64,000 bases of DNA from positions 32,246,464 through 32,310,463 of the forward strand of contig NC_083582.1 of the NCBI RefSeq assembly GCF_027579695.1. The letters are read 5' to 3'. Below the pieces are notes generated by a model. It was not told the DNA's origin. It saw only the letters and a program-made list of their open reading frames with translations, and searched no databases. The stretch is from Neoarius graeffei. Lineage: Eukaryota; Chordata; Actinopteri; Siluriformes; Ariidae. Positions 35,055-48,615 of this stretch are shown one piece after another. Both the position numbers and the translations under genes were made by a program. Position 1 is the stretch's first letter; each line of letters opens with the position of its first letter.

Positions 35055-38000
35055 GCCAACACACACACACACACACCTCTCTTATCCCAGTCTGTACTCA
35101 CTCCAACCCTTAAATGACAGGTATTCAAAAACTATTCAACCGGTTCAACCATTCAACAACCATTCAACAACCATTTCATTTTAGCATTTCAACATTTTTA
35201 CAGTTTTAACATTTTAACATTTTCTTAGTCTGCAACTATTCAGGTGCGAAATGCAATGCGCCGGACTTTTGTTGTGCGTGCGTGCGTACTGTCCAGTGTG
35301 AAAAGCAGAGAAGAACACACCGCTCGAGAAACTGCGGGATATGATTGCAGGCTAATGTGAATATTCTTAGCTTCAATCAGATATATGAAACATAATGTTA
35401 TTAAGCCGTTGTGGTTATGAAATGATTCAATGCCCTGTGCGTTTGATATGGTGTTCAGTGTGACTTGCTCTCCCCTCGTTTGTAACATGAACTGCGTGCC
35501 GCGTGTGCCTTGGTTTGGGTTACTTTACGGGGCTGGAAAAAGTTGGCTGTGTCTTACCTGGCTCAGCTGCCCCACTGCCTTTGCTAGTACCTGCTGCATC
35601 ATCCGAATCTTTTTTAAAATATTTATGCAGTGAGCCCCTGAGTCTCTTGGTTTCTTCCTCTCTTTTTCTCTTTTCTTTTCTTTTCTTTTCTGTGCTCCTG
35701 ACTTGTGCATGTTGGCAAATGGCACGCACGCTGATTGTCGAAGCGCTATGATTGAACGATGTCGTTTTTTTCCCCTTAATCAAAGAGTCGGACCAAACCA
35801 TTTTTGCATTAGGGGTGGTAGGGGGTTCTTGACGCCTTTTTCAAAGACAATAAAGGCAAAAGATCTAGAAATCATTTATTGAATGCAAATACAGCACATT
35901 TCTCCCCCAAATCAACACATTTTGAAATGAAATAAAATAATCGCAACTTCATGAGAGCCCAGTTCTGCCCCCCCATTCCTGGGCCCGGGACAACATACCC
36001 GTTTGTCCCCCCCTGTCGGCGGGCCTGTATATATGCATGCTGGGACATCCCTTCTGAAAAAGTTGGATGTGGTGTACCATTCTGCCCTGCGCTTTATAAC
36101 AGGGGCAAACGCAAGGACGCATGACTGTAACCTTTATCATATGGTTCAGTGGACATCTCTGTCTATAAGAAGGAAAAGTCATATTTTAATATTTGTTGCA
36201 AAAGCTATCTTAGGTAAGTTGCCGTTCTTTATATCTAGTCTGCTTGTATGGCGTACTTACACTTATAGCACTCGTGCATCAGAGAAAATACTTTTTCAAA
36301 TTCCAATGTCACAAACAGAACTTGGTAAAACAGCCTTCTGTGCATATGCACCGTGTGCTTGGAATGAGCTACAAAATACACTAAATCTTGTGACGATACC
36401 CTCTATTGCATTTTTTAAAAATTGTTTAAAGTCAGTACTTACAGAAGAGTGTCATTGTTTTTAATCAAGGCTACTGCTTCTTCATTTTATACTACTTATG
36501 CTTTATTTCTTTTTTACTCTGTGTTCTATGTGTGATTGTTGACTGTTTTGTCCTGGTGTTTTGGTTTATGTTAGTCTGTATTTCTTGTATGAAACTTTTA
36601 AGTCGCTATCTTGGCCAGGACTCCCTGGAAAACGAGATATTGTATCTCAATGGGACCTTCGTGGTAAAACATCTCATCTCATTATCTCTAGCCGCTTTAT
36701 CCTTCTACAGGGTCGCAGGCAAGCTGGAGCCTATCCCAGCTGACTACGGGTGAAAGGTGGGGTACACCCTGGACAAGTCACCAGGTCATCACAGGGCTGA
36801 CACATAGACACAGACAACCATTCACACTCACACCTACGGTCAATTTAGAGCCACCAGTTAACCTAACCTGCATGTCTTTGGACTGTGGGGGAAACCGGAC
36901 CACCCGGAGGAAACCCACGCGGACACAGGGAGAACATGCAAACTCCACACAGAAAGGCCCTCGCCGGCCCCGGGGCTCGAACCCAGGACCTTCTTGCTGT
37001 GAGGCGACAGCGCTAACCACTACACCACCGTGCCGCCCTTGGTAAAACATGAGATAAATAAATAAATAAAGAGAAGCACATTGACCTGTTCATACGGCAT
37101 GTTCAGGAGCAAACTAATGTTAATGGCGCTGAAACAGACACCGTCAAATGGTGCGGTTGGAGTCTTGTTCTCGGACTCGACTCGAAATTTTCTTTAATGA
37201 CTTGGACTTGATTTGGACTTGAACACTGGGGACTCGAGACTGGACTCGGACTCGAGGTTTAGTGACTCGACTACAACACTGCATCACATTACCTTTACGT
37301 TATGTTTAGCATTCAGAAACATTGTGCAGACTCCAGACAGCAGATTACTCTTGCTTTGTCTGTAACTGATTTTACATTTGGTAGTTTCATGCACCTTGAT
37401 TGTCATGATTATATCCAGATGTAAATCTGTTTGTTCAAAGCACTTCAAGAGTTCTTCTGAGACAGATTTTAGCCACATGCTAAGTGCATACGTATGTCTT
37501 TCCAAGTCCCATCATCAGGATTTTTTTAACCTGTTCTTTATAGGGAAACTTCTGTTTTAGACAGCATTAACTTTTTCAACAGTTTGTGCTACAGTAGCTT
37601 TTCTGTAGGATTGGACCATATGGGCTAGCCTTCGTGCCCGATGTGAATCAACAAGCCTTCGACATCCATGACCCTGTCGCCGGTTCACAGATTGTCCTTC
37701 CTTGGACCACTTTTGGTCAGTACTAACCACTGCATTGCTGGGCTTCACGTGACATCACATCCGCCTCATTAGTTATTCAGAACTTTAGCTGGTGGTCTAC
37801 CAAAGCTCAGCTGACAAAGCATTTCTATGAAGAAGGTGCATTGCTCGCATGAAAAATGCCTTACGCTTGCATTGTTCGAATCGATCAAACCGTGAAACTG
37901 ATAAAAGTTTCTTCAGGGTTCCCCGTGAACTAATAAAAAAGGGTGAACGAACACAGGATTTCACAAAAAGACGTCGAGAAAGGCGGCTTTTGAACCTCTC

Positions 38001-41000
38001 GCTGAAATCGAAGGGAGCCAAGTCTAAGCATGCTCGAGTTTGCAGTGACCACTTGGTGAAAGGTTTGTATCCCTCTCAGCTATGTCCTTAGTGTTTTCCA
38101 AGTACTTTTCTTGCTATGTGTCGTTATTTTACGGTACTTTTTTTAGTCACAAAGCGCTAAAGTCCCCAGCTGTTTCTTTGTTTCCTCCTCACAAAGTCCA
38201 AATGCATGAAGGTCACTACAAAATTCTTCCCCAGCCATACAGTTACAATGCGCTGTGATCACTTCTCCGTCTTGTTTAACTAAGATCCAGGTCTTTAAAG
38301 GGGTTTCTGATGAGCTTTGTGAATGATTTAGCTGAGAGATAAGAGCCAACACAAGTGAGAATCAAGCCAACTGTTTGTTTACACTTCAACTTGCAGCGCT
38401 TCGTTGTAAAGATGCGAACGAAAAGCTTTTAAAAAAACATACTTACACGGGCAAAAACAATACAGGATTCATTCGGCAGTGACTTGATAGCGAGGTCCTT
38501 TACCCAGCCACATACAAAAAAGCTGTAAGCCTCCATACTCTTCCACGCTTTCATCTGTTTTGCGGTGTAGAAGGACATCTGCAACACCAGGTAGTTCGAG
38601 ATGTCGGGGAACTCGACTGAAGCGTAGTTTTCGAGATCGTATGACAAATCCTTCTTTCCCAGACTGTAGGGGTCGATTCCATTGCACATAGCAATCTTCT
38701 GAATATATCTAAAGTGAGCAGTGGCTTCTAGATTACAAGCGTACTCTGATAAGTTATCGCTAGTTGTTTGCACTATGGCAGCCGTTTAGACCACCAGCTA
38801 TTCCACTTCCGGTAAAACCGCTAAGAAAAGTCACGTTACTGAAACCCAGCAATACTGGTAACACCCCACAAGATGTGCCATTTTGGAAATGCTCAGACCT
38901 AGTCTTCTCACCACCACAATTTGGCCCTGGTCAAAGTTGCTCCTTACGCTTGCCCATTTTTCCTGCTTCCAACACATCAGCTTCAAGAACTGACTGTTCT
39001 CTTGCTGCCTAACATATCCCACCCCTTAACAGGTGCCATCGTAATGAGACAATCTTTCTGTCAGTGGTTTTAATGTTATGGCTGGTTGGTGTATCCTTAA
39101 CTTGCAGGTGACGTCAAAGTAAAATAGAAACCCGGATGACGGCCATGTTGGTGGAGATACAAATGTGGGGTCAAGCGACATTCCATACAAAACATAGTCA
39201 CACGTCTGCAACTCTCTTTGTTTTTCCACTGCTTTAAGCGTTCTTTTAGTTATGCCATTTCTTTGTGCTGTATATGTTGTGGTCACAACAATACTTGTGA
39301 CCGTGGCACGCTCCAATTTTTTAGAATTGCGTCCATGATTCGGAAAGAGGGTGAGGAAACTCTGAGGCTTAGTACGGAGAGGAGACAAGCACGGCTGAAC
39401 TACATCGGCAGGGGTGATCTAACGGAGGCTAAAACCAAAACAGGGTCATTCCGTGCCAGCTCACCTAGGGGTCCCCAGGTCACCCCCTCAGATTTTGCTG
39501 GAAAAATTCTTAAATGTAGATCTATATGTTTCTACACTCTCTGCAAAGTATTAGCTTTCAATTCCTCATAGATTCCGAAAAACAGGCCTTTGAAATTTGA
39601 CCCCCAAGAAGCTAAATTTGCAAAACGTGCTTTCTTCCAACTTCAGGAGCTTATAATTTTAAAATGGATTAAACCTGGAAGCCAATATTGCAGATATTTA
39701 CTAAATGGCATCCATATTTTTCAATTATGCCATCAGTTAGCCTCTGGGATGCTTATTTATCACTCTATAGGAAGCCAAAAATGGCTTTTCGGCCAAAATG
39801 AGCTAAAATAGGGTGTAACTATAGGAGCCATTCTGGAAAAATGGATCAACTCAGACTTTTCTCCTCATAACACAGTAATTATATGGTCATTATCTGTTCA
39901 TAGGTACATTTTTTCCAGGATAACACTGTTAGGTGATGAATTACAAAAGTTTTAACATAAGCCCATCTCTCCCGAGGGCCCAAAAAGAGCCCATTTTTGC
40001 CTCCCAGTTTGACCATGTGGCTAGGGGTTCAGGATCTTCATTTTTTTTCTAAATATTGTCTCTTATAGGATGTATCTACTGACCAAATTATTTTAACGAA
40101 CACCCATGGCTTCATATTTAAATCAATTTTTATGTACACAAACATTTTTTTATGATTATTCCATTTTTCTCATATTTATCAGCTTATAGGCCTGAAATGG
40201 AACTATCCTGGACAGAGGTACTACAGAGTTTTATAAGCTGCCATAAAACAGTTTAGATTGTTGTATCAGAATACCTCTAGAAAATGTTTATTTGAGTAGC
40301 ATCTCATTTCTTTTCTACATACAGATACACACATGTACACTCTATATAATATGCATGTATACAAAGACAAAGAATCATTTTTACCACTTTTAGAAAACTC
40401 CTTAATGCCATTTTCATCTGTCCTGACTCTTAATATCTAGTATTAAAAGGTGCATAACGTTACATCTTAGAAAACAGATCTTGAACATGCTTAAAGTCAT
40501 GCTGTGACAGTTGATACTGACGTCCTCCAGATTTTATGTCAGGGGCCTCAACCACACAAAGAATGTCCAGACAGACAGGCTGACTCTGCTGTCCCCAGAC
40601 TGTCACTCCATCTGGTGGTGTATGCCATAACTAAAATGACTTCAGTAAACTGTTAAAGTACTGTTGGACAGGTTTTTAAATAAAACTCCAAACATGTATG
40701 GATCATGATTGAAACAATATATTTATGAATAGCAAAAGTACCTAACATTATTACCAGTACTTTATGAGTAGAATAATCAATGTTGTCACATAACCTCACT
40801 TAAGGACCTCTTCATAAATAATTACCAGTTTGGGCCAAATTACCATTTTCAGTTTCCCATAGATAGAAAACTAAGCATTCTTCAGGCATTCTTATTCCAG
40901 AATATGAAAATGTGTATGCCAGTTTATAGATCTGGGCAGTATCACTTTTCTATCAGGGGCGATTTCTCAGAGACAACAAGGGAAGCCGAGCTTCCCCTAA

Positions 41001-44000
41001 AATTCTCTCCCCAAACTGCGGCGTCTACGACGTTGAATTCTCATTAAAACAATAACTTGCATAACATAATATATGCCCAAGATTGTATTTATGTTCAAAC
41101 CTATCCTGTAACTTATTTGAGTGATGTCTGACGAACTTGCAGTTCGCTACGAGAATCACCTTTGCTGCCAGGCTGTAACCTTTCTTATTTCAATGGGCTC
41201 TATGGACTGGCAGCAGTGTTGCCAGATTGGGCAGTTTTAAGTGCATTTTGGCGGGTTTTGAACATATTTTGGGATGGAAAACGTCAGCAGTATCTGGCAA
41301 CACTGATTGGCAGCCAGGTATCCGTTGCAGTCTACGAGACGGCTCTGAACAGCCAATTTCGGCTAGTTGTTATTGGTTAAAATCAACAAAATCGTCACTT
41401 CCAGGGAAGCCGGGCTTCTCTGGGACTAAACGAGACAGTGGGAGGGACAAGAAGCCGGGCTGATAAAGGATTATTGGAGGTAGTGTTTGAAAGACATGAG
41501 GAGGGCGGTACTTCGGCGAGGAACACGGAAGTATGATCAGTCAGTCCCTAGCGGATGTCGAGAAAGTGCAGTCGTGTGCCAAAGTGCTGTCCGAATTTCT
41601 TTTCGTATAAACGGTTCTTCTCATTGATGTCTCTGTACATTACTCTGTAAATAAATGTAAATATTACTCATTGTGCTCCATTAACTTTCATCCATTCTAT
41701 CAGTTTGATCATTTGTGAATTCACTCGTTTATTTCATTTGTAGTTCAATCTGGTTGTAGGCTAGCTTGAGCCTTATTGGGATCTGCAGTGCTAGCTGCTA
41801 ACAGAAATTGGTGAAGTCTCTGGAAAGCACAACCAGCTGGTATGACAGGGTCACAGACCATTTTCTGGAAAAGGAGCGGAGGGCAGAATGTGTGTATAAA
41901 TAGTGTTCATGTTCATGAATCTGAAGTGTGTATATTGTTCAGTAATGTTAAGAGAATGGTGGGCTCTGTGTTATAGGTTATACCTGGGTATAATATTCAA
42001 GGTTCTGTGTGTTGCATAGCCTACCTGGTTATGAATTTCCAGACTGTGTTGCAGAAGATGTTCAAGGATGTGTTGCACAGCTGGGTGTTGTGTTAAAGAC
42101 TCTGTGTTGCATATCAGGGTATGATGTTCAAGGCTCTTCGTTGAATAGCCAGTGATTTTTGGATGTTTGATATTTTTGATTAAGGATATGAGGCACTAGC
42201 CTGGCAAGCCAGACTATAAAATGAAATGTACAAGCAAAAATACTTTCTGCCACTAGGTAGGGTTGTCTAGTTCACTATGCTAATGGGGCACACCTTTCTA
42301 TGCTTTGATATCCGGCCTACAGGTTTTACGATGAATGCGTAAAATGGGCTTCCCCTGTTTTAAAAACCAGCAGCCGCCACTGTTTTCTATATAGTTCTGT
42401 TTCAGATTTATAAGGTCCTGAATATGACAAAACAGTGATTTATGAAAAAAACGTTCATTTACATAAAAATTGATTTAAATGTGAAGCCATAGGTGTTCGC
42501 TAAAATAACTTGGTCAGTTGATACATCTTATAGAAGACAATATCAAGAAAAAATGAGAAGATCCTGAACCCCTAGCCACATGGTCAAACTGGGGGGCAAA
42601 AATGGGCTATTTTTGGGCCCTCAGAGAGATGTGCTTATGTTAAAACTTTTGTAATTCATCACCTAACAGTGTTATCCTGGAAAAAATGTACCTATGAACA
42701 GATAATGACCATATAATTACTGTGTTATGAGGAGAAAAGTCTGAGTTGATCCATTTTTCCAGAATGGCTCCTATAGTTACACCCTATTTTAGCTCATTTT
42801 GGCCGAAAAGCCATTTTTGGCTTCCTATAGAGTGATAAATAAGCATCCCAGAGGCTAACTGATGGCATAATTGAAAAATATGGATGCCATTTAGTAAATA
42901 TCTGCAATATTGGCTTCCAGGTTTAATCCATTTTAAAATTATAAGCTCCTGAAGTTGGAAGAAAGCACGTTTTGCAAATTTAGCTTTTTGGGGGTCAAAT
43001 TTCAAAGGCCTGTTTTTCGGAAACTATGAGGAATTGAAAGCTAATAATTTGCAGGGGTTGTAGAAACATATAGATCTACATGTACGAATTTTTTTCAGCA
43101 AAATCTGAGAGGGTGACCTGGGGAGTTTCCAGAAATTTAGGTGAGTTGGCACGGAATGACCCAACAGCTCGTGTTTACAGTAATCATTTTATCTCAGGTG
43201 AGATTCAAAAACTTTCTTTATAATATCATGGAAGAATTTTATTTCATGTTGCTAGAATTTTGCTATAAAACGAGCGTTCTCTTGTTGTGGTTCACTCGGT
43301 TGTTGTTATAATTTTAACATGTGCATTACCATTTCGCTTCTAGGAGCGCCAGCAAAATTATACGATAGAAACAATCCAGACTGGGCACCCGCTCAGAAAA
43401 TGGGCTATGCTTCGTCCAAGGTCAGACTTGATTCTTTGGCAGCCAAACCACATAGAGTGCCTTGCAAAAGTATTCATCCCCCTTGGTGTTTGTCCTGTTT
43501 TGTCACATTACAAGCTGGAATTAAAATGGATTTTTGGGGGCTTAGCATCATTTGATTTACACAACATGCCTACCACTTTAAAGGTGCACATTGGTTTTTT
43601 TTTATTGTGACACAAACAATAATTAAGATGAAAAAACAAATCTGGAGCATGCATACAGTAGATATTCACCCCCTCAAAGTCAATACTTTGTAGAGCCAAC
43701 TTTTGCTGCAATTACAGCTGCAAGTCTCTTGGGGTATGTCTCTATTAGCTTAGCACATCTAGCCAGTGGGATTTTTCCCCATTCCTCAAGGAAAAACTGA
43801 TCCAACTCTTTCAAGTTAGATGGGTTGCGTTGGTGTACAGCAATCTTCAAGTTATGCCACAGATTCTCAGTGGGATTGAGGTCTGGACTTTTATTAGGCC
43901 ATTCCAAGACATTTAAATGTTTCCCTTTAAACCACTCCAGTGTAGCTTTAGCAGTATGTTTAGGGTCATTGTCCTGCTGGAACGTGAACCTTCGTCCCAG

Positions 44001-47000
44001 TCTCAAACCTCTGGCTGACTCAAACAGGTTTTCCTCCAGAATTGCCCTGTATTTAGCGCCATCCGTCTTTCCTTCAGTCCTGACCAGCTTTCCTGTCCCT
44101 GCAGATGAAAAACATCCCCACAGCATGATGCTGCCACCTCCACGCTTCACTGTAGGGATGGTGTTCTCAGGGTGTTGGGTTTGCGCCGCACATGGCGTTT
44201 CCCATGATGGCCAAAAAGTTCAATTTGTGTCTCATTTGACCAGAGAATCATCTTCCATGTGTTTGGGGAGTCTGCCACATGCTGTTGGGCAAACTCCAAA
44301 TGTGATTTTTTTTTTTTGAGCAATGACTTTTTTCTGGCCACTCTTCCATAAAGGCCCACTCTGTGGAGTGTACGGCTTAAAGTGACCCTATGGACAGATA
44401 CTCCCATCTCCACTGTGGATCTTTGCAGCTCCTTCAGTGTTATCTTTGGTGTCTTTGTTGCATCTCTGATTAATGCCCTCCTTACCCGGTCTGTGAGTTT
44501 TGGTGGGCGGGGCCTTCTCTTATCAGGTTTGTAGTGGTGCCATATTCTTTCCATTTTGCTATAATGGATTTAATGGTGCTCTGTGGGATATTCAAAGTTT
44601 AGGATATTTTTTATAACCCGACCCTGATCTATACTTCTCCACAACTTTGTCTCTGACCTGTTTGGAGGCTCCTTGGTTTTCATGTTGCTTGCTTAGTAGT
44701 GTTGCAGAGTCAGGGTCCTTCCAGAACAGGGTGATTTATACAGACATCATGTGACAGATCATGTGACACTTTGATTGCACACAGGTGGATCTTAATCAAC
44801 TAATTATGTGACTTATGAAGTGAATTGGTTGGACCAGCTCTTATTTAGGGGTTTCATACGAAAGGGGGTGAATACCTATGCATGCTCCAGATTTCTGTTT
44901 TTTCATCTTAATTATCGTTTGTGTCACAATAAACAAAACAATGTGCACCTTTAAAGTGTTAAGCATGTTGTGTAAATCAAATGGTGCTAACTCTCCAAAA
45001 ATCCATTTTAATTCCAGCTTGTAATGCGACAAAACAGGACAAACACCAAGGGGGATGAATACTTTTGCAAGGCACTGTAGAACGCGATATCTGGGTACTT
45101 GATGGTCGGTAGAAGCGTCTTATCTTCAGAAAAGTCTGACTTTTTAAAATAATATGGGTCAAAACCACACACATCTATCTTCTCTTTGTATCGAATCTTT
45201 GCTCGACCGTTCAAATCGTGGTAATGCTGAATTTTCTCAGCATTGTTTAGAGACACGCTTTCAGCGGCTGCCATCCTAGTTGCTTTGTAGATCCACCATC
45301 ATGGCGGACGCTCATGACGTAGCACATTTTGATCACGTGGTTGCAAGTCATCGATATGAGAGAATGAAAGCATGCCTTATGTAGTGTTATTCTACTCTAA
45401 ACTCTGGAGCAATGCAGGAAAAACTCATTGCGATTTCGACACTTCCTCACATGTGGCTGCATGAAATCTGACGCACTTCTGTGGTAACTTTTTTTTTTTT
45501 TATTGAAAAAGAGAATCAGGAAAATTCCAGTCACAGAATTACAATTTACATTTTTTTTTATAGTTAAACACATACATACCAGTATATGCATATGTACATA
45601 CAATATACCAAAATATATATACATAATATATACATACTTACATACACATGAAAACTTCAATTATATATGAAAAAAAAACAAAACAAAAGAACAATAAACA
45701 AAAAAAACACTACCCTACCACCCCCCGCCCCTCCCGTCTCCCACGGCTCGTCCTGACAAAAAAAAAAAAAATGATACTGGTTACCGATGCATTCCTGAGT
45801 ACAACAGACACACTCAGTTGGGCAGTACCTCCAAGTTAGTGAAATATGAAATAAAGGGTTGCCATTTGTGAAAAAACTTGTCCGTACATCCTCTCAATGT
45901 ATACTTAATTTTCTCCAGTTTTAGGAAAAACATGGTGTCTTTAAGCCACCTGAAAATGGAAGGACATTTAGCAGATTTCCAATGCAACAGTAAAGAACGT
46001 CTTGCTAGTAAGGATGTATAAGCAATAATATCCTTTTGTATAGAATTCAGTGCAAGTGAGGCATCAGGAATCCCAAAAATGGCAACCAACGGGCAAGCCT
46101 GCAGATTTACACCAAGAACAGTGGACATAATGGAAAAATAGCCTGTCCAAAAACTATACAGCTCAGGGCAAAGAAAAAACATATGGCTGAGGTGACAGGG
46201 AGAGCCATGGCACTTATCACATGTATCTTCTACTTCTGGATACATTTCAGAAAGTCTTGACTTGGAAAAATGGACCCTGTGTAAAACTTTGAATTGGATA
46301 AGTCCAAGATGAGCACAAGAAACTTCTGTGGTAACTTTGACTATTTGCAACATAATCATATATTCTTGCATTCCTTCTCCCCCAAACCCACAAAATGTCC
46401 CGTTTCTAAAAGGATAAATTATAGACACACGTTTATTTATGTCCCAATAAGAGTACTGTTTATAGTATTTCCACAGATACACAAGCTAGAGATTAGGTAT
46501 TGTGGTATGCCAAGGTGTCATGGGAAAATTATAAGAATCACAAATGTCTGTCTAGCACTAAAATGTTGATATTTGGTTTCCAGCTTGTTTACAGCCAACA
46601 CTTTTGACTCCATTGATGAAGATGTGTTTCAGGGCCTGCCACATCTGGAGTACCTGTGAGTTGCTTTGCCCTTTTATTACTTTTTAATGTCGTAAATAAA
46701 TGCAGTAACTTCCTAAACATGACGCTTGATTACAGGTTTATCGAAAACAACAAAATCAAGTCCATGTCACCTTTGGCCTTTCGAGGTTTGAAATCTCTCC
46801 TCCATCTGTGAGTATATCCGAGCATAATTTATGATCTGAGAACAAACGATTAACTGTATATAACGGCTGTGAAAGCGTGACACGTTCATATTTATCTTTT
46901 TGCTGATCAGGAGCCTTGCCTATAATAATCTCGAGGCATTACCCAAAGATGTTTTCAAGGGGATGGATGCCTTAACCAAAGTGTATGTTTACATAATATC

Positions 47001-48615
47001 TCCATTTAATGTTCATGACGTCAACTTTATGATGACCAGATTGAGCAGGATATTAACTGGAAATATTACGTACTACCAGGGATCTTCGAGGAAACATGTT
47101 CGTCTGTGACTGTAAACTGAAATGGCTGGTTGAGTGGATACACAACACCAATGCAACAGTGGACCAGATTCACTGTAGCGGGCCGCCACTTTATCAAGGG
47201 AAGAAGATCAACGAGCTGATGCCCCAAGTGTTTGACTGTATAACTGCAGGTGGGGTGACGCTTCTTTATAATATTGTTAAATCTGAAACTATTGTTGTTT
47301 CTTACAAAACAACAAGACAAATCAAGATTGCACAAATCTCCAGAGTCAGAACAAGTACTCAAAGCTGCAGTTTTAAAACGGAAATATCCATCAGTTAAAT
47401 CATCCTTCTGTTACAGAGTTCGTTTCCAAGAAGACCCTGAAGTTCGAGTCCATTTCAGTCGAGACCTTCACCATTGGGAATGATCAGTATGTGGTGTTTG
47501 CACAGCCTTTTGCGGGAACATGTAGCTTCATGGAATGGGACCACGTCAACATGGAGTTCAGACCTTATGACAGTATAGAGAGTGAGAGCCGGCTAATACT
47601 GTATACACACTCAGAATGTTTGGTTTGTGGTGTTCGTTAATGAGATTACTGGAAAATAAACGTCTGAGTGTAACCAAAAGTCGACTAATCCATTTCGAAG
47701 CTACAGTCAAGATGTTCACCTGTGCTGAATGCTAACGTATGTCCCACGCCATACCATGAAGCTGTTCTTAACTGCTTTTATTTCTGTTTCTTCTTAGGCA
47801 CCTCCACCGTGGTCTGTAAGCCAATGGTGATCGATGACCAGCTTTTCATTATTGTTGCCCAACTTTTTGGGGGCTCACACATTTACAAGCGGGACACATC
47901 AGCCCACAAGTTCATCAAGATCCAAGACATTGATATCCTGAAAATCCGCAAGCCCAATGACGTTGAGACATTCCGCTTGGACGGCGAGTGGTTCTTCACA
48001 ATTGCTGACAGCTCCAAAGCAGGCTCCACTACTGTGTACAAGTGGAACGGCAACGGTTTCTACTCGCACCAGTCTCTACACCCGTGGCACCGTGACACGG
48101 ACGTGGAGTACCTGGAGATCGGAGGCAAACCCCATCTAATCCTGTCCAGCAGCTCGCAACGGCCCGTTGTCTATCAGTGGAACCGGATCCAGAAGAGGTT
48201 TGAGCGGCGCACAGACATCCCTGAGACAGAGGACGTATATGCCGTCAAGCACTTCAGAGCCAGAGGGGAGCTTTATATCTGCCTGACGCGCTTCATTGGT
48301 GATTCAAAGGTGATGCGGTGGGACGGTGCCATGTTCACCGAGGTGCAGAACGTGCCGTCACGTGGCTCCATGGTTTTCCAGCCTGTGAGAGTTGGAAGCT
48401 GGCAGTACGCCATCCTTGGCAGCGACTACTCACTCACACAGGTCTACAAGTGGGACTCCAAGAAGGGCCGCTTCGTTCACTTCCAGGAGCTGAACGTCCA
48501 AGCGCCAAGGGCCTTCTCTCTGGTATCCATTGACAACCATGAGCTCCTGCTCGCCTCCAGTTTCAAAGGGAGGACACAGATCTACGAGCACCTCATCGTC
48601 GATCTGAGTAATTGA
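27397..48615 (+). CDS. lgi1: lgi1, leucine-rich glioma-inactivated 1, complete coding region (8 exons)
   Basis: LGI1 is a secreted neuronal glycoprotein that bridges ADAM22 and ADAM23 at synapses. In-phase exons (203, 72, 72, 72, 72, 170, 165, 818 nt) give 547 residues, against 557 in human. A signal peptide covers about residues 1-28 (hydrophobic [15 protein letters not shown]). Then come a cysteine-rich LRRNT cap ([14 protein letters not shown]), four LRRs each on a 72-nt exon, an LRRCT cap ([19 protein letters not shown]) with an NAT glycosylation sequon, and seven-bladed EPTP/EAR repeats from about residue 225 to the end ([49 protein letters not shown]). It ends LIVDLSN. All introns are GT-AG. 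Intron 2 (27749-46583) is enlarged to 18.8 kb by transposons; introns 3-7 are 80-216 bp. The exact fish paralogue (lgi1a or lgi1b) is not resolved. Confidence 0.97.
27677..27748 (+). CDS. lgi1: lgi1 exon 2: first LRR
   Basis: 72 nt, acceptor caacag, donor gtgagc. It encodes [20 protein letters not shown] then LQL, matching SFVRSGFTEISEGSF of human LGI1. Confidence 0.97.
27905..29660 (+). repeat. 1.75-kb G/T-only minisatellite in lgi1 intron 2
   Basis: Starting about 160 bp after exon 2, the plus strand is almost purely G and T (units such as ttgtgttgttggtgg and ttttgtgttgctgg), with only scattered C or A. A higher-order duplication of about 470-490 bp is visible: ttactggtgg contexts lie at 28231 and 28721, and ctgttggtattgg at 28501 and 28971. 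Long stop-free frames are a by-product of composition. Confidence 0.95.
29661..30600. other. Intron 2 non-coding DNA with a dispersed repeat at 29870-30050
   Basis: The part containing gggtgcatacctccaccaag and aaatttcaccaaaatccgtt recurs at 62415-62580 (cgtgcatacctcctctaaac), so it is an interspersed repeat of about 180 bp. The rest has no recognisable gene. Confidence 0.65.
30608..30900 (-). repeat. LTR-retroelement remnant: tRNA-Pro-type primer-binding site and LTR edge
   Basis: On the minus strand 30640-30623 reads TGGGGGCTCGTCCCGGAT, the complement of a tRNA-Pro 3' end including CCA. Complementarity extends further, through the T arm (gaggtcacaggttcaaatcc on plus). To its right, ttttgttaggacccggctca would be the inner end of an LTR. 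No coding region remains. This is read as a relic, not a tRNA gene. Confidence 0.55.
30901..32280. other. Intron 2 DNA, no gene recognised
   Basis: AT-rich sequence with a poly-C run near 30935 and poly-A/T stretches. The segment at 31320-31560 (tcttcttttgggttttacag and ctgccatctacaggttta) looks like another interspersed repeat. Confidence 0.45.
32293..32655 (-). repeat. tRNA-derived SINE, (GGAT)n-tail subfamily
   Basis: The duplication accacactaatc lies at 32281-32292 and 32656-32667. The tail is a run of ccat units. It has small deletions relative to the main family. Confidence 0.97.
33987..36660 (+). pseudogene. Non-LTR retrotransposon ORF2 (reverse transcriptase), split by a hAT element
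   Basis: An open frame from 33987 encodes the reverse transcriptase: [69 protein letters not shown], the catalytic CYADDTIIY and [12 protein letters not shown]. The hAT at 34972-36027 interrupts it after DYGDIIYM. The frame resumes in the next residues ([15 protein letters not shown]) and ends at the stop after LTEECHCF (36464). The 5' end and endonuclease are missing. The 3' end carries a SINE and an aataaataaat tail. CR1/L2/Rex1-like. Confidence 0.9.
34972..36027. mobile_element. Non-autonomous hAT, 8-bp duplication TATATATG
   Basis: The ends CAGGGCCGCTGACAG and inverted CAGGCCCGCCGACAG are flanked by TATATATG at 34964-34971 and 36028-36035. A run of about 33 C lies at 35021-35052. No transposase remains. 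It sits inside the LINE reverse transcriptase. Confidence 0.92.
36673..37039 (-). repeat. tRNA-derived SINE, main family
   Basis: The duplication tggtaaaacat lies at 36662-36672 and 37040-37050, within the 3' end of the LINE. It lacks one of the tgtgag repeats near 36832. Confidence 0.97.
37849..38091 (+). pseudogene. THAP-domain remnant of an ISL2EU-like transposase
   Basis: The frame carries [20 protein letters not shown], then [20 protein letters not shown] and [12 protein letters not shown]. The FFRVP and VCSDH blocks are the THAP zinc-finger core. The usual first cysteine lies in another frame (MPYACIV), so the reading is shifted near the start. The catalytic domain is absent. Confidence 0.7.
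38143..38352 (-). pseudogene. SWIM zinc-finger exon of the ISL2EU-like second protein
   Basis: Following an acceptor tctcag, the reading is [20 protein letters not shown] then [21 protein letters not shown]-x-C followed by a downstream C/H pair is the SWIM finger that precedes the YqaJ nuclease in this family. It is truncated before the nuclease. Confidence 0.7.
38429..38773 (-). pseudogene. First exon of the ISL2EU-like SWIM/YqaJ protein
   Basis: It encodes [40 protein letters not shown] and [17 protein letters not shown], ending CIVFAR before a strong donor gtaagt. The same protein is recognisable at 45274, 54290 and 58340. Exon-intron structure is retained between this and the SWIM exon. 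Confidence 0.75.
39443..43162. mobile_element. 3.7-kb element with ~720-bp terminal inverted repeats
   Basis: GGGTCATTCCGTGCCA at 39443 is mirrored at 43147-43162. The two arms (about 39443-40160 and 42440-43162) match with roughly nine in ten bases by eye, with a small deletion in the left arm. AACA borders both sides (39439-39442 and 43163-43166). No transposase is visible in the 40160-42440 centre, which contains a nested hAT. Each arm carries the same short 73-codon ORF, which looks like a by-product. The class is unknown. Confidence 0.85.
40954..42382. mobile_element. Non-autonomous hAT, 8-bp duplication TTTTCTAT
   Basis: The ends CAGGGGCGATTTCT and inverted CAGTGGCGGCTGCTGG are flanked by TTTTCTAT at 40946-40953 and 42383-42390. 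It contains ggaagccgagcttcccct-type motifs. No transposase. It is nested in the inverted-repeat element. Confidence 0.92.
43455..45077 (-). mobile_element. Tc1-family transposon, degraded
   Basis: TA flanks lie at 43453-43454 and 45078-45079. The ends are GAGTGCCTTGCAAAAGTATT (first base changed) and inverted CAGTGCCTTGCAAAAGTATT. It interrupts the ISL2EU-like element between its THAP and SWIM/YqaJ genes. Confidence 0.93.
43680..44683 (-). pseudogene. Tc1 transposase, frameshifted, first catalytic Asp replaced
   Basis: From the ATG at 44683 ([11 protein letters not shown]) the N-terminus is shifted several times. [20 protein letters not shown] and [16 protein letters not shown] are readable. 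The first catalytic site reads [12 protein letters not shown], Asn in place of Asp. [11 protein letters not shown] and [11 protein letters not shown] retain the second Asp and the Glu. A frameshift near 44150 separates the two halves. Confidence 0.92.
45080..45274 (-). pseudogene. First exon of the ISL2EU-like SWIM/YqaJ protein
   Basis: It starts [20 protein letters not shown] and continues [17 protein letters not shown] then [12 protein letters not shown] before the Tc1 cuts it. The FDPY-x-KKSDFS and YPDI motifs match the copies at 38773 and 58340. Confidence 0.75.
45492..46321 (-). pseudogene. L1-type LINE, 5'-truncated 3' fragment with target duplication
   Basis: The minus strand encodes the C-terminal part of an L1-like ORF2: [20 protein letters not shown], then a zinc-knuckle-like [18 protein letters not shown], ending near 45835. 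A poly-A tail (plus-strand T run) is at 45492. Acttctgtggtaacttt flanks both ends (45475-45491 and about 46322-46338), proving a target-primed insertion close to lgi1 exon 3. Confidence 0.9.
46584..46655 (+). CDS. lgi1: lgi1 exon 3: second LRR
   Basis: 72 nt, acceptor ttccag, donor gtgagt. It encodes [20 protein letters not shown] then LEY. Confidence 0.97.
46736..46807 (+). CDS. lgi1: lgi1 exon 4: third LRR
   Basis: 72 nt, acceptor ttacag, donor gtgagt. It encodes [20 protein letters not shown] then LLH, near identical to FIENNNIKSISRHTFRGLKS in human. Confidence 0.97.
46911..46982 (+). CDS. lgi1: lgi1 exon 5: fourth LRR
   Basis: 72 nt, acceptor gatcag, donor gtatgt at 46983. It encodes [20 protein letters not shown] then LTK plus a split Val codon. 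Confidence 0.96.
47080..47249 (+). CDS. lgi1: lgi1 exon 6: LRRCT cap
   Basis: 170 nt, acceptor taccag, donor gtgggg. It encodes [19 protein letters not shown] and the capping cysteines through FDCITA. The codon split (G|AG, Glu) matches the next exon. Confidence 0.96.
47417..47581 (+). CDS. lgi1: lgi1 exon 7: LRRCT-EPTP linker and first blade
   Basis: 165 nt, acceptor ttacag, donor gtgaga. It includes [20 protein letters not shown] and [19 protein letters not shown], the first EPTP blade. Confidence 0.96.
47798..48615 (+). CDS. lgi1: lgi1 exon 8: remaining EPTP repeats and stop
   Basis: 818 nt from acceptor cttcttag to TGA at 48613-48615. It carries the other six EPTP blades and the C-terminus [15 protein letters not shown]. 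Base composition is more GC-rich than the surroundings, as expected for constrained coding sequence. Confidence 0.98.

What the first reader, a model, noticed from the sequence alone, without database searches (positions are those of the whole stretch)
39443..43162. Possible undescribed element class with ~720-bp terminal inverted repeats
The arms are long and similar, the ends are sharp (GGGTCATTCCGTGCCA) and a 4-bp AACA duplication is likely. No transposase is recognisable and the ends do not match the usual fish superfamilies I know. The insertion is demonstrated because it splits a THAP exon cleanly.
Basis: partly seen in the sequence, partly recalled or inferred. Interest (0 to 1): 0.75.

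Follow-up and report, generated by a model that had tools for sequence, protein, structure and literature searches.

The report
Jumping element with very long arms
The window holds a real, repeated jumping DNA element with very long mirror-image ends, and the same fish genome also holds longer relatives, with matching ends, that carry the likely enzyme gene.

Summary
Arms 39443-40206 and 42391-43162 (764/772 bp) are inverted, share GGGTCATTCCGTGCCA ends and are flanked by AACA. A nested 1,429-bp hAT-like insertion (8-bp TSD TTTTCTAT) inflates the element; without it, it is 2,283 bp.

The exact 16-bp end occurs 164+154 times (reversed control 0). Of 35 two-ended copies checked, 32 have exactly 4-bp duplications (none 3 or 5-8 bp), of many sequences. 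A sister family ("B", arms 67-70% identical) includes a 5,860-bp copy with the same ends (one base changed) and TSD CTAA, holding part of a transposase gene; two other, imperfect B copies have frames of 772-792 aa. The window element keeps about 32 codons of that gene's 3' end. One element of a third clade (5.3 kb, end GGGTCATTCCATGTCA) encodes a 54%-identical protein.

So it is a non-autonomous cut-and-paste transposon with an identified likely transposase source, not a class without one. The protein has no significant Pfam, NCBIfam or PDB match.

The parts
39439..39442 (.). left copy of the 4-bp target site duplication AACA
39443..40206 (+). left arm (terminal inverted repeat, 764 bp), begins GGGTCATTCCGTGCCA
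   Evidence: copies
39609..39962 (+). 354-bp core of the left arm, identical to the right arm
40207..40953 (+). internal region (747 bp), present wholly or in part in 18 of 20 fetched stretches of this family (no hit in L026 and L032)
40460..40630 (-). stop-to-stop frame whose last part is a remnant of the C-terminus of the family's transposase ([32 protein letters not shown])
   Evidence: score 121 against shuffled maximum 47
40946..40953 (.). left copy of 8-bp TSD TTTTCTAT of the nested hAT-like element
40954..42382 (+). nested hAT-like element, 1,429 bp, ends CAGGGGCG.../...CCGCCACTG; not part of the family
   Evidence: no hit in 19 of 20 other fetched stretches, not all of which reach the site; hAT label from TSD length and ends, recalled
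42383..42390 (.). right copy of TTTTCTAT
42391..43162 (-). right arm (772 bp), ends TGGCACGGAATGACCC
42633..42986 (-). identical core in the right arm
43163..43166 (.). right copy of the 4-bp target site duplication AACA
39239..39442 (+). 5' part of the interrupted THAP-like exon
43167..43197 (+). 3' part of the interrupted THAP-like exon, up to a GT donor-like site

Best explanation
A non-autonomous cut-and-paste DNA transposon (family A, 2,283 bp without its nested hAT-like insertion). Shown: near-constant GGGTCATTCCGTGCCA ends, 764/772-bp inverted arms, 4-bp target duplications of varied sequence, many closely similar copies, and longer relatives (family B, 5.8-5.9 kb; one clade C element, 5.3 kb) with matching ends that encode a long protein with conserved LLDFAENY, YFSDG and SPCDG blocks. 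Inferred: that protein is a DDD-type transposase; it binds the arms of A and B in trans, cuts at the GGG/CCC ends, and inserts at staggered cuts 4 bp apart, giving the duplication. Inferred: A arose from a B-like autonomous ancestor by internal loss, leaving the last ~32 codons. Also inferred: the near-identical cores of the two arms come from exchange (gene conversion or foldback repair) in the founder copy, since seven other A copies show a broadly similar profile.
For: Ends and TSD in the window. 43 arm matches with 40 of 355 candidates scored. Exact end 164+154 times against 0+0 for the reversed pattern. 4-bp TSD in 32 of 35 two-ended copies: 13 of 15 in A, 19 of 20 in B. Most A copies share left arm, internal region and right arm. 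Family B arms 67-70% identical over the whole arm, first 16 bases the same (B loci were picked by exact ends). B copy C1:125507389-125513248, 5,860 bp, TSD CTAA, whose inner stretch L053 holds a 490-aa piece of the frame. Frames of 772 and 792 aa. Exon 1 conserved between B and C (E 1.9e-19, 38.6%), with a GTAAGT donor, and a TTTTCCAG acceptor in exon 2's frame. Asp421, Asp505 and Asp546 invariant in four sequences of clades B, C and D. Window remnant of the C-terminus. Pairwise identity, gaps left out: 97.4-98.3% in A (7 copies), 99.2-99.8% in the 2.78-kb B class (5 copies), 99.4-99.7% in the 3.42-kb class (4 copies).
Against: No transposition assay and no structure model. Trans-mobilisation of A by B is inferred from shared ends; arms differ by about 30% inside. 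Three of 35 two-ended copies lack an exact TSD (L021, a recombinant with left arms at both ends; L025; L036). The clade C copy (L066) has TATT/TACT, one mismatch, and its two ends differ from each other at base 13. Neither long-frame B copy is whole: L065 lacks the first 10 bp of one end; L064 lacks most of exon 1 and shows no second arm in the stretch read; each also differs at one residue of the conserved SHGKSPCDG block. The two-ended B copy on C1 has a shorter open frame (565 aa), one changed end base, and about 1.8 kb of its middle was not read. So no single copy is shown with two good ends and a complete gene. The arm-core profile is not uniform: L028 drops to 68 and 80% and L023 to 63% in single 60-column blocks.
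Confidence: 0.88

Rival explanations
1. It is an ordinary member of the described Sola superfamily (group Sola1 or close to it), which specialists would recognise from the transposase.
For: 4-bp TSD not restricted to TTAA or AWWT; a conserved Asp triad and no similarity to other known transposases fit the published definition as I recall it (Bao et al. 2009, not held); coding relatives of 5.3-5.9 kb, close to the mean 5,445 bp reported for bivalve Sola1 (PMC10294476, passages read).
Against: No Sola protein or terminus could be compared here; the recalled definition is a lead, not a test; relatives in prokaryotes, which Sola has (recalled), were not found (a scan limited to two short peptide patterns).
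Confidence: 0.5
2. A distinct superfamily of DDD transposons that no library has named.
For: No significant Pfam match for the long frames of two clades (best chance hit E 0.04), none in NCBIfam for the 251-aa C-terminal part, none in PDB (one chance hit E 1.6); no held paper prints the motif words searched.
Against: Pfam lacks models for several Repbase superfamilies (recalled); Repbase and Dfam not searchable; protein motifs are rarely printed in papers.
Confidence: 0.2
3. Kolobok relative (Kolobok or the KolobokP lineage): 4-bp TSD and 5'-RR...YY-3' termini.
For: Ends GG...CC fit RR...YY; TSD is 4 bp.
Against: TTAA in 0 of 33 TSDs (plus window); KolobokP has long terminal DIRECT repeats and was reported absent from vertebrates (PMC9587614, section 5 read); here the arms are inverted.
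Confidence: 0.05
4. Not a transposon: a local inverted duplication or assembly artefact.
For: The 354-bp identical core could be produced by assembly of a palindrome.
Against: 318 exact ends in the genome and 4-bp TSDs in 32 of 35 copies checked; seven other A copies show a broadly similar arm profile.
Confidence: 0.01
5. The window copy is mobilised by an autonomous element other than B, not yet found in this genome.
For: A and B arms are only 67-70% identical inside; the scans scored only part of their candidates (40 of 355; 150 of 1,067).
Against: The first 16 bases agree between A and B, and the first 20 for the window's right end and most A copies read; the A remnant is closest to the B C-terminus (121 against 56 and 50).
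Confidence: 0.25

Closest known systems
Sola superfamily (Sola1/2/3)
   Same: 4-bp TSD; conserved Asp triad candidate; length of coding relatives near the bivalve Sola1 mean of 5,445 bp (PMC10294476 passage)
   Different: TSD is not AWWT as for Sola2 (PMC3627910 passage) nor TTAA as for Sola3 (recalled); sequence relation untested
KolobokP
   Same: 4-bp TSD (Kolobok superfamily), RR...YY termini, long terminal repeats (PMC9587614)
   Different: direct instead of inverted long repeats; reported absent from vertebrates; protein relation untested
Galileo (P superfamily) and long-TIR Mutator-like elements
   Same: very long terminal inverted repeats, foldback-like shape (PMC3688188, PMC3310237: starts of abstracts in the listing)
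   Different: P has 7-8-bp TSDs (PMC5199201 passage), Mutator 8-9 bp (recalled); here 4 bp
Academ
   Same: mean length 5,565 bp in bivalves; long protein (recalled)
   Different: 3-bp TSD in PMC5199201, 3-4 bp as recalled; here 4 bp

Membership tests
Class II cut-and-paste DNA transposon with terminal inverted repeats | constant inverted ends, fixed-length TSD, dispersed copies | tested here: met
Class II cut-and-paste DNA transposon with terminal inverted repeats | transposase encoded by longer relatives with the same ends | tested here: met
   (frames and ends in relatives, none complete in all respects); enzymatic activity not tested
Sola superfamily | 4-bp TSD | tested here: met
   32 of 35; CTAA
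Sola superfamily | DDD transposase | tested here: inconclusive
   Asp421, Asp505, Asp546 invariant in 4 sequences of 3 clades; Glu532 is invariant too; catalytic role inferred
Sola superfamily | significant similarity to Sola transposases | not testable with these tools
   no Sola sequences held; no significant Pfam match
Sola2 group | AWWT target preference | tested here: not met
   4 of 33 TSDs are AWWT (one search list plus window AACA)
Kolobok / piggyBac / Sola3 | TTAA target duplication | tested here: not met
   0 of 33 TSDs are TTAA (plus window)
KolobokP | long terminal direct repeats | tested here: not met
   arms are inverted
Academ | 3-bp TSD (as stated in PMC5199201) | tested here: not met
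   0 of 35 copies with a 3-bp match; a recalled 3-4 bp range would not exclude it
hAT, P, MuDR | TSD of 5-8, 7-8 and 8-9 bp | tested here: not met
   0 of 35 at 5, 6, 7, 8 bp; P length from PMC5199201, the others recalled
Harbinger / ISL2EU / Mariner | 3-bp or 2-bp TSD | tested here: not met
   (0 of 35 at 3 bp); 2-bp matches were seen only together with a 4-bp TSD

The most novel reading that the evidence does not exclude
A recently active vertebrate transposon superfamily of its own: DDD transposase of about 860 aa in two exons with a Cys/His-rich first exon, absent from Pfam, moving elements with 0.8-1.34-kb inverted arms (about 78% of a 3.4-kb copy) whose inner parts are kept nearly identical by exchange between arms, with a 4-bp duplication and no strict target sequence.
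Probability: 0.2. Interest if true: 0.65.

Novelty: new member of a known kind. Interest (0 to 1): 0.45.

Why it matters
It turns an orphan long-TIR repeat into a family with a likely partner: longer relatives with long open frames, near-identical (99%+) non-autonomous copies and clear target rules. That makes transposition testable in cells. If it is a Sola-type element, it would be a recently active vertebrate example; if not, it adds a transposase lineage that the profile libraries searched here miss. The very long, partly identical arms also give a natural system for exchange between inverted repeats.

Tried and rejected
searched papers for the 16-bp end, its reverse complement and its first 10 bases. 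The list puts papers with more terms first and none of the 20 shown (of 65) holds the 16-bp end; the reverse complement is absent from those 20 only. Of 4 papers with the 10-mer and 'transpos' (3 listed), one passage was read and is a primer (PMC11558072); the others were not opened; the end or an arm word in viral and prokaryote contigs; 4 stretches with the bare end and no longer match than 18 bp there, otherwise none; left arm (and internal region in 46) against phages and plasmids, no match; the protein against viral contigs, prokaryote genomes and phages, no relative (the contig scans rest on 2-6 short peptide patterns); no Rfam family at gathering score in 38800-43800; nine of the 44 listed frames were scanned; no Pfam hit but a chance-level DUF (E 0.13) in the nested element. 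Inserts in other copies lie at different places and were set aside by eye as nested elements.

Considered and rejected: solitary inverted duplication; Kolobok/piggyBac/Sola3 (no TTAA); P, hAT, MuDR (TSD length); retroelement (no such parts seen).

Not done: structure prediction. Its stated rule names the window and loci from three other tools, not stretches from the fetch from genomes, so the transposase was not sent.

Dropped before the TSD count: of 20 loci, five (L026, L027, L030, L031, L032) had only one end in the stretch read. All 20 loci were picked because both ends matched exactly, so they say nothing about end constancy. L039 and L040 share the same flanks, so the 35 copies are 34 independent sites. 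For L046 the fetched stretch was set 15 bp short and its end was corrected.
Full report
Checking the observation. The arms align over 764 and 772 bp with 49 substitutions and 14 gap columns. A 354-bp core has no difference, while the outer part differs at 13 of 166 and the inner part at 36 of 241 aligned bases. Shuffling the 55 difference events 20,000 times never gave a run longer than 171.

A nested insertion. Bases 40954-42382 are a separate 1,429-bp element with an 8-bp duplication TTTTCTAT. It sits 772 bp (and its TSD) from the right end; with it left out, weak arm similarity runs on to 851/857 bp. Among the 20 other stretches it was found only in L019; not all of the other 19 reach the site. 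The label hAT-like rests on the TSD length and the CAG...CTG ends and is recalled. Without it the window element is 2,283 bp.

The insertion site. The element splits a THAP-like exon. With the element and one AACA taken out, the protein reads on and, by eye, lines up without a gap with a second THAP-like exon at 37831-38091 (translations). The DNA aligner placed small gaps beside the junction, so the evidence is at the protein level. Pfam's THAP model gives E 0.0049 for the joined piece, no THAP hit for the left part alone, and 1.1e-4 for the second exon; both scores lie below the cut-off. Fish ISL2EU transposons encode a THAP or HTH transposase and a YqaJ nuclease (PMC9179366, passages read), so this exon may itself be transposon-derived; that was not tested.

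Copies in the genome. The genome search answered only three times among many busy replies. The window lies in a 2.34-Gb assembly of 38 contigs. The left arm gave 43 matches with 40 of 355 candidates scored. The exact 16-bp end occurs 164 times forward and 154 times reverse, against none for the reversed pattern. Twenty stretches were fetched (found by arm similarity, family A) and twenty (pairs with both ends exact, from the 100 places listed). Fifteen of the first twenty and all twenty of the second had two ends. Of the 30 ends of the first fifteen, 24 are exact over 16 bp and 6 have one changed base, at the same position of the element. Of the 35 two-ended copies, 32 have a perfect 4-bp duplication, none has one of 3 or 5-8 bp, and crossed flanks agree in 18 of 1,190 pairings. 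The sequences vary (AGCT, CATT, TATA, GAAG, TGCA, CACA and others) with a lean to A/T at the last base. The three without are L021, which has left arms at both ends and looks like a recombinant, L025 (ATTA/ATCA) and L036.

A second family with a longer content. Copies mostly of about 2,784 bp or 3.42 kb share the ends but have arms only 67-70% identical to those of the window. In L033 (3.42 kb) the arms are 1,329 and 1,341 bp at 96% identity, so they make up about 78% of the element, and their inner half is nearly identical. Seventeen of the 20 copies hold a frame of 162-266 aa with this C-terminus. It matches a frame on the minus strand of the window element (40460-40630): [32 protein letters not shown] against LHVLCVVEAPNIKSGGRHYQLTEDDFKLVKDL, score 121 against at most 47-50 for shuffles; against clades C and D the scores are 56 and 50, with shuffles up to 41 and 43.

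The transposase gene. A protein search of the own genome scored 150 of 1,067 candidates. It listed frames of 792 and 772 aa in the B family and of 767-774 aa in a clade about 49% identical over that part. L064 and L065 were read. Exon 1, on the minus strand of L065, encodes MDAEK... with a Cys/His-rich block (CLHHE...CCDPFKMH), ends at GTAAGT, and is conserved in clade C at 38.6% (E 1.9e-19); exon 2 has an acceptor TTTTTTTTTCCAG. Together this predicts about 860 aa; the splice is predicted, not observed. Blocks LLDFAENY, YFSDG and AEWHFFATSHGKSPCDGIGGTVKR are conserved, with Asp421, Asp505 and Asp546 invariant in four sequences of three clades; Glu532 is invariant too, so the third catalytic residue is not fixed by this alone. 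L064 and L065 each differ at one residue of the SHGKSPCDG block, which may matter for activity, and L064 lacks most of exon 1.

Ends of the longer elements. C1:125507389-125513248 (5,860 bp) begins with the exact end, finishes with an end carrying one change, has the duplication CTAA, and holds a 490-aa piece of the frame in the stretch read (L053; open frame 565 aa); about 1.8 kb of its middle was not read. L065 lacks the first 10 bp of one end. L064 has one end in the stretch read. The clade C copy (L066, C3:72541859-72547164, 5,306 bp) starts GGGTCATTCCATGTCA, its other end reads GGGTCATTCCATATCA, its arms are about 810 bp at 96%, and its flanks TATT/TACT differ by one base. Its arms resemble A's at the ends (scores 51 and 46 against 36 and 33 for shuffles), while the B-C score (41) is not above shuffles (42). 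By Repbase's rule for non-autonomous elements (same TSD length and 1 mismatch allowed in positions 1-11; PMC4455052 passage), A and B go together; C has the ends for it but no exact TSD was seen.

Age. Seven A copies are 97.4-98.3% identical to each other; five 2.78-kb B copies 99.2-99.8%; four 3.42-kb copies 99.4-99.7%, gaps left out. B has probably moved more recently than A.

How it probably works. Inferred: B transposase cuts at the GGG/CCC ends, joins to staggered target cuts 4 bp apart, and does the same for A in trans. The arms' inner identity is seen, broadly, in the seven other A copies profiled (L028 and L023 have low blocks), so it probably predates their spread and is best explained by exchange between arms of the founder.

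What it is. The TSD length excludes hAT, P, MuDR, Harbinger and Mariner types (lengths for these partly recalled); TSD sequence excludes Kolobok, piggyBac, Sola3 (TTAA in 0 of 33) and Sola2 (AWWT in 4 of 33; Sola2 rule from PMC3627910); KolobokP has direct repeats and was reported absent from vertebrates (PMC9587614). No significant Pfam, NCBIfam or PDB relative was found; the best chance-level hits were E 0.04-0.22 in Pfam and 1.6 in PDB. The Sola definition (DDD transposase, 4-bp TSD, groups with different ends) is recalled from Bao et al. 2009, which is not held. Bivalve Sola1 elements average 5,445 bp (PMC10294476). I therefore think Sola1-like is the most likely label (about 0.5), untested. 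What is said about absence from print rests only.

Noticed in passing
window 40954-42382 and L019 4433-6162: The same hAT-like family sits at the same site of family A in two copies, in opposite orientation (window TSD TTTTCTAT; L019 flanks TTTCCTAT/TTTTCTGT), which suggests an insertion hot spot inside the element.
   Followed up: partly
window 41214-41305: A 92-bp stretch with 14-bp perfect inverted ends (CAGTGTTGCCAGAT) and near 8-bp flanking repeats (ACTGGCAG/ATTGGCAG) lies inside the nested hAT-like element: a further level of nesting (sequence).
   Followed up: no
L021 (C12:75580433-75585232): Apparent recombinant copy with family A left arms at both ends and no target duplication, as expected from recombination between two copies.
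   Followed up: no
L015 and L026 (C25, about 8.7 kb apart): The right flank of one copy is the reverse complement of the left flank of the other, so an inverted duplication or inversion may have its breakpoint at this element.
   Followed up: no
L039 and L040 (C1:24443869 and C1:29667375): Two B copies share the same flanking 20 bp on both sides, 5.2 Mb apart: a segmental duplication or an assembly duplicate.
   Followed up: no
window 37831-38091, 38429-38785, 39239-39442, 45008-45298: THAP-like exons and minus-strand frames close together; may be pieces of ISL2EU-type transposons (recalled; only the THAP parts had weak Pfam support).
   Followed up: partly
window 43440-45100: A Tc1/mariner-like element (DDE_3 hit 43680-44219, minus strand, E 4e-11) interrupts the region just downstream of the THAP-like exon.
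   Followed up: no
window 47689-48615: Exon with six EPTP stretches (E 4e-72), from an LGI1-like host gene (name recalled).
   Followed up: no
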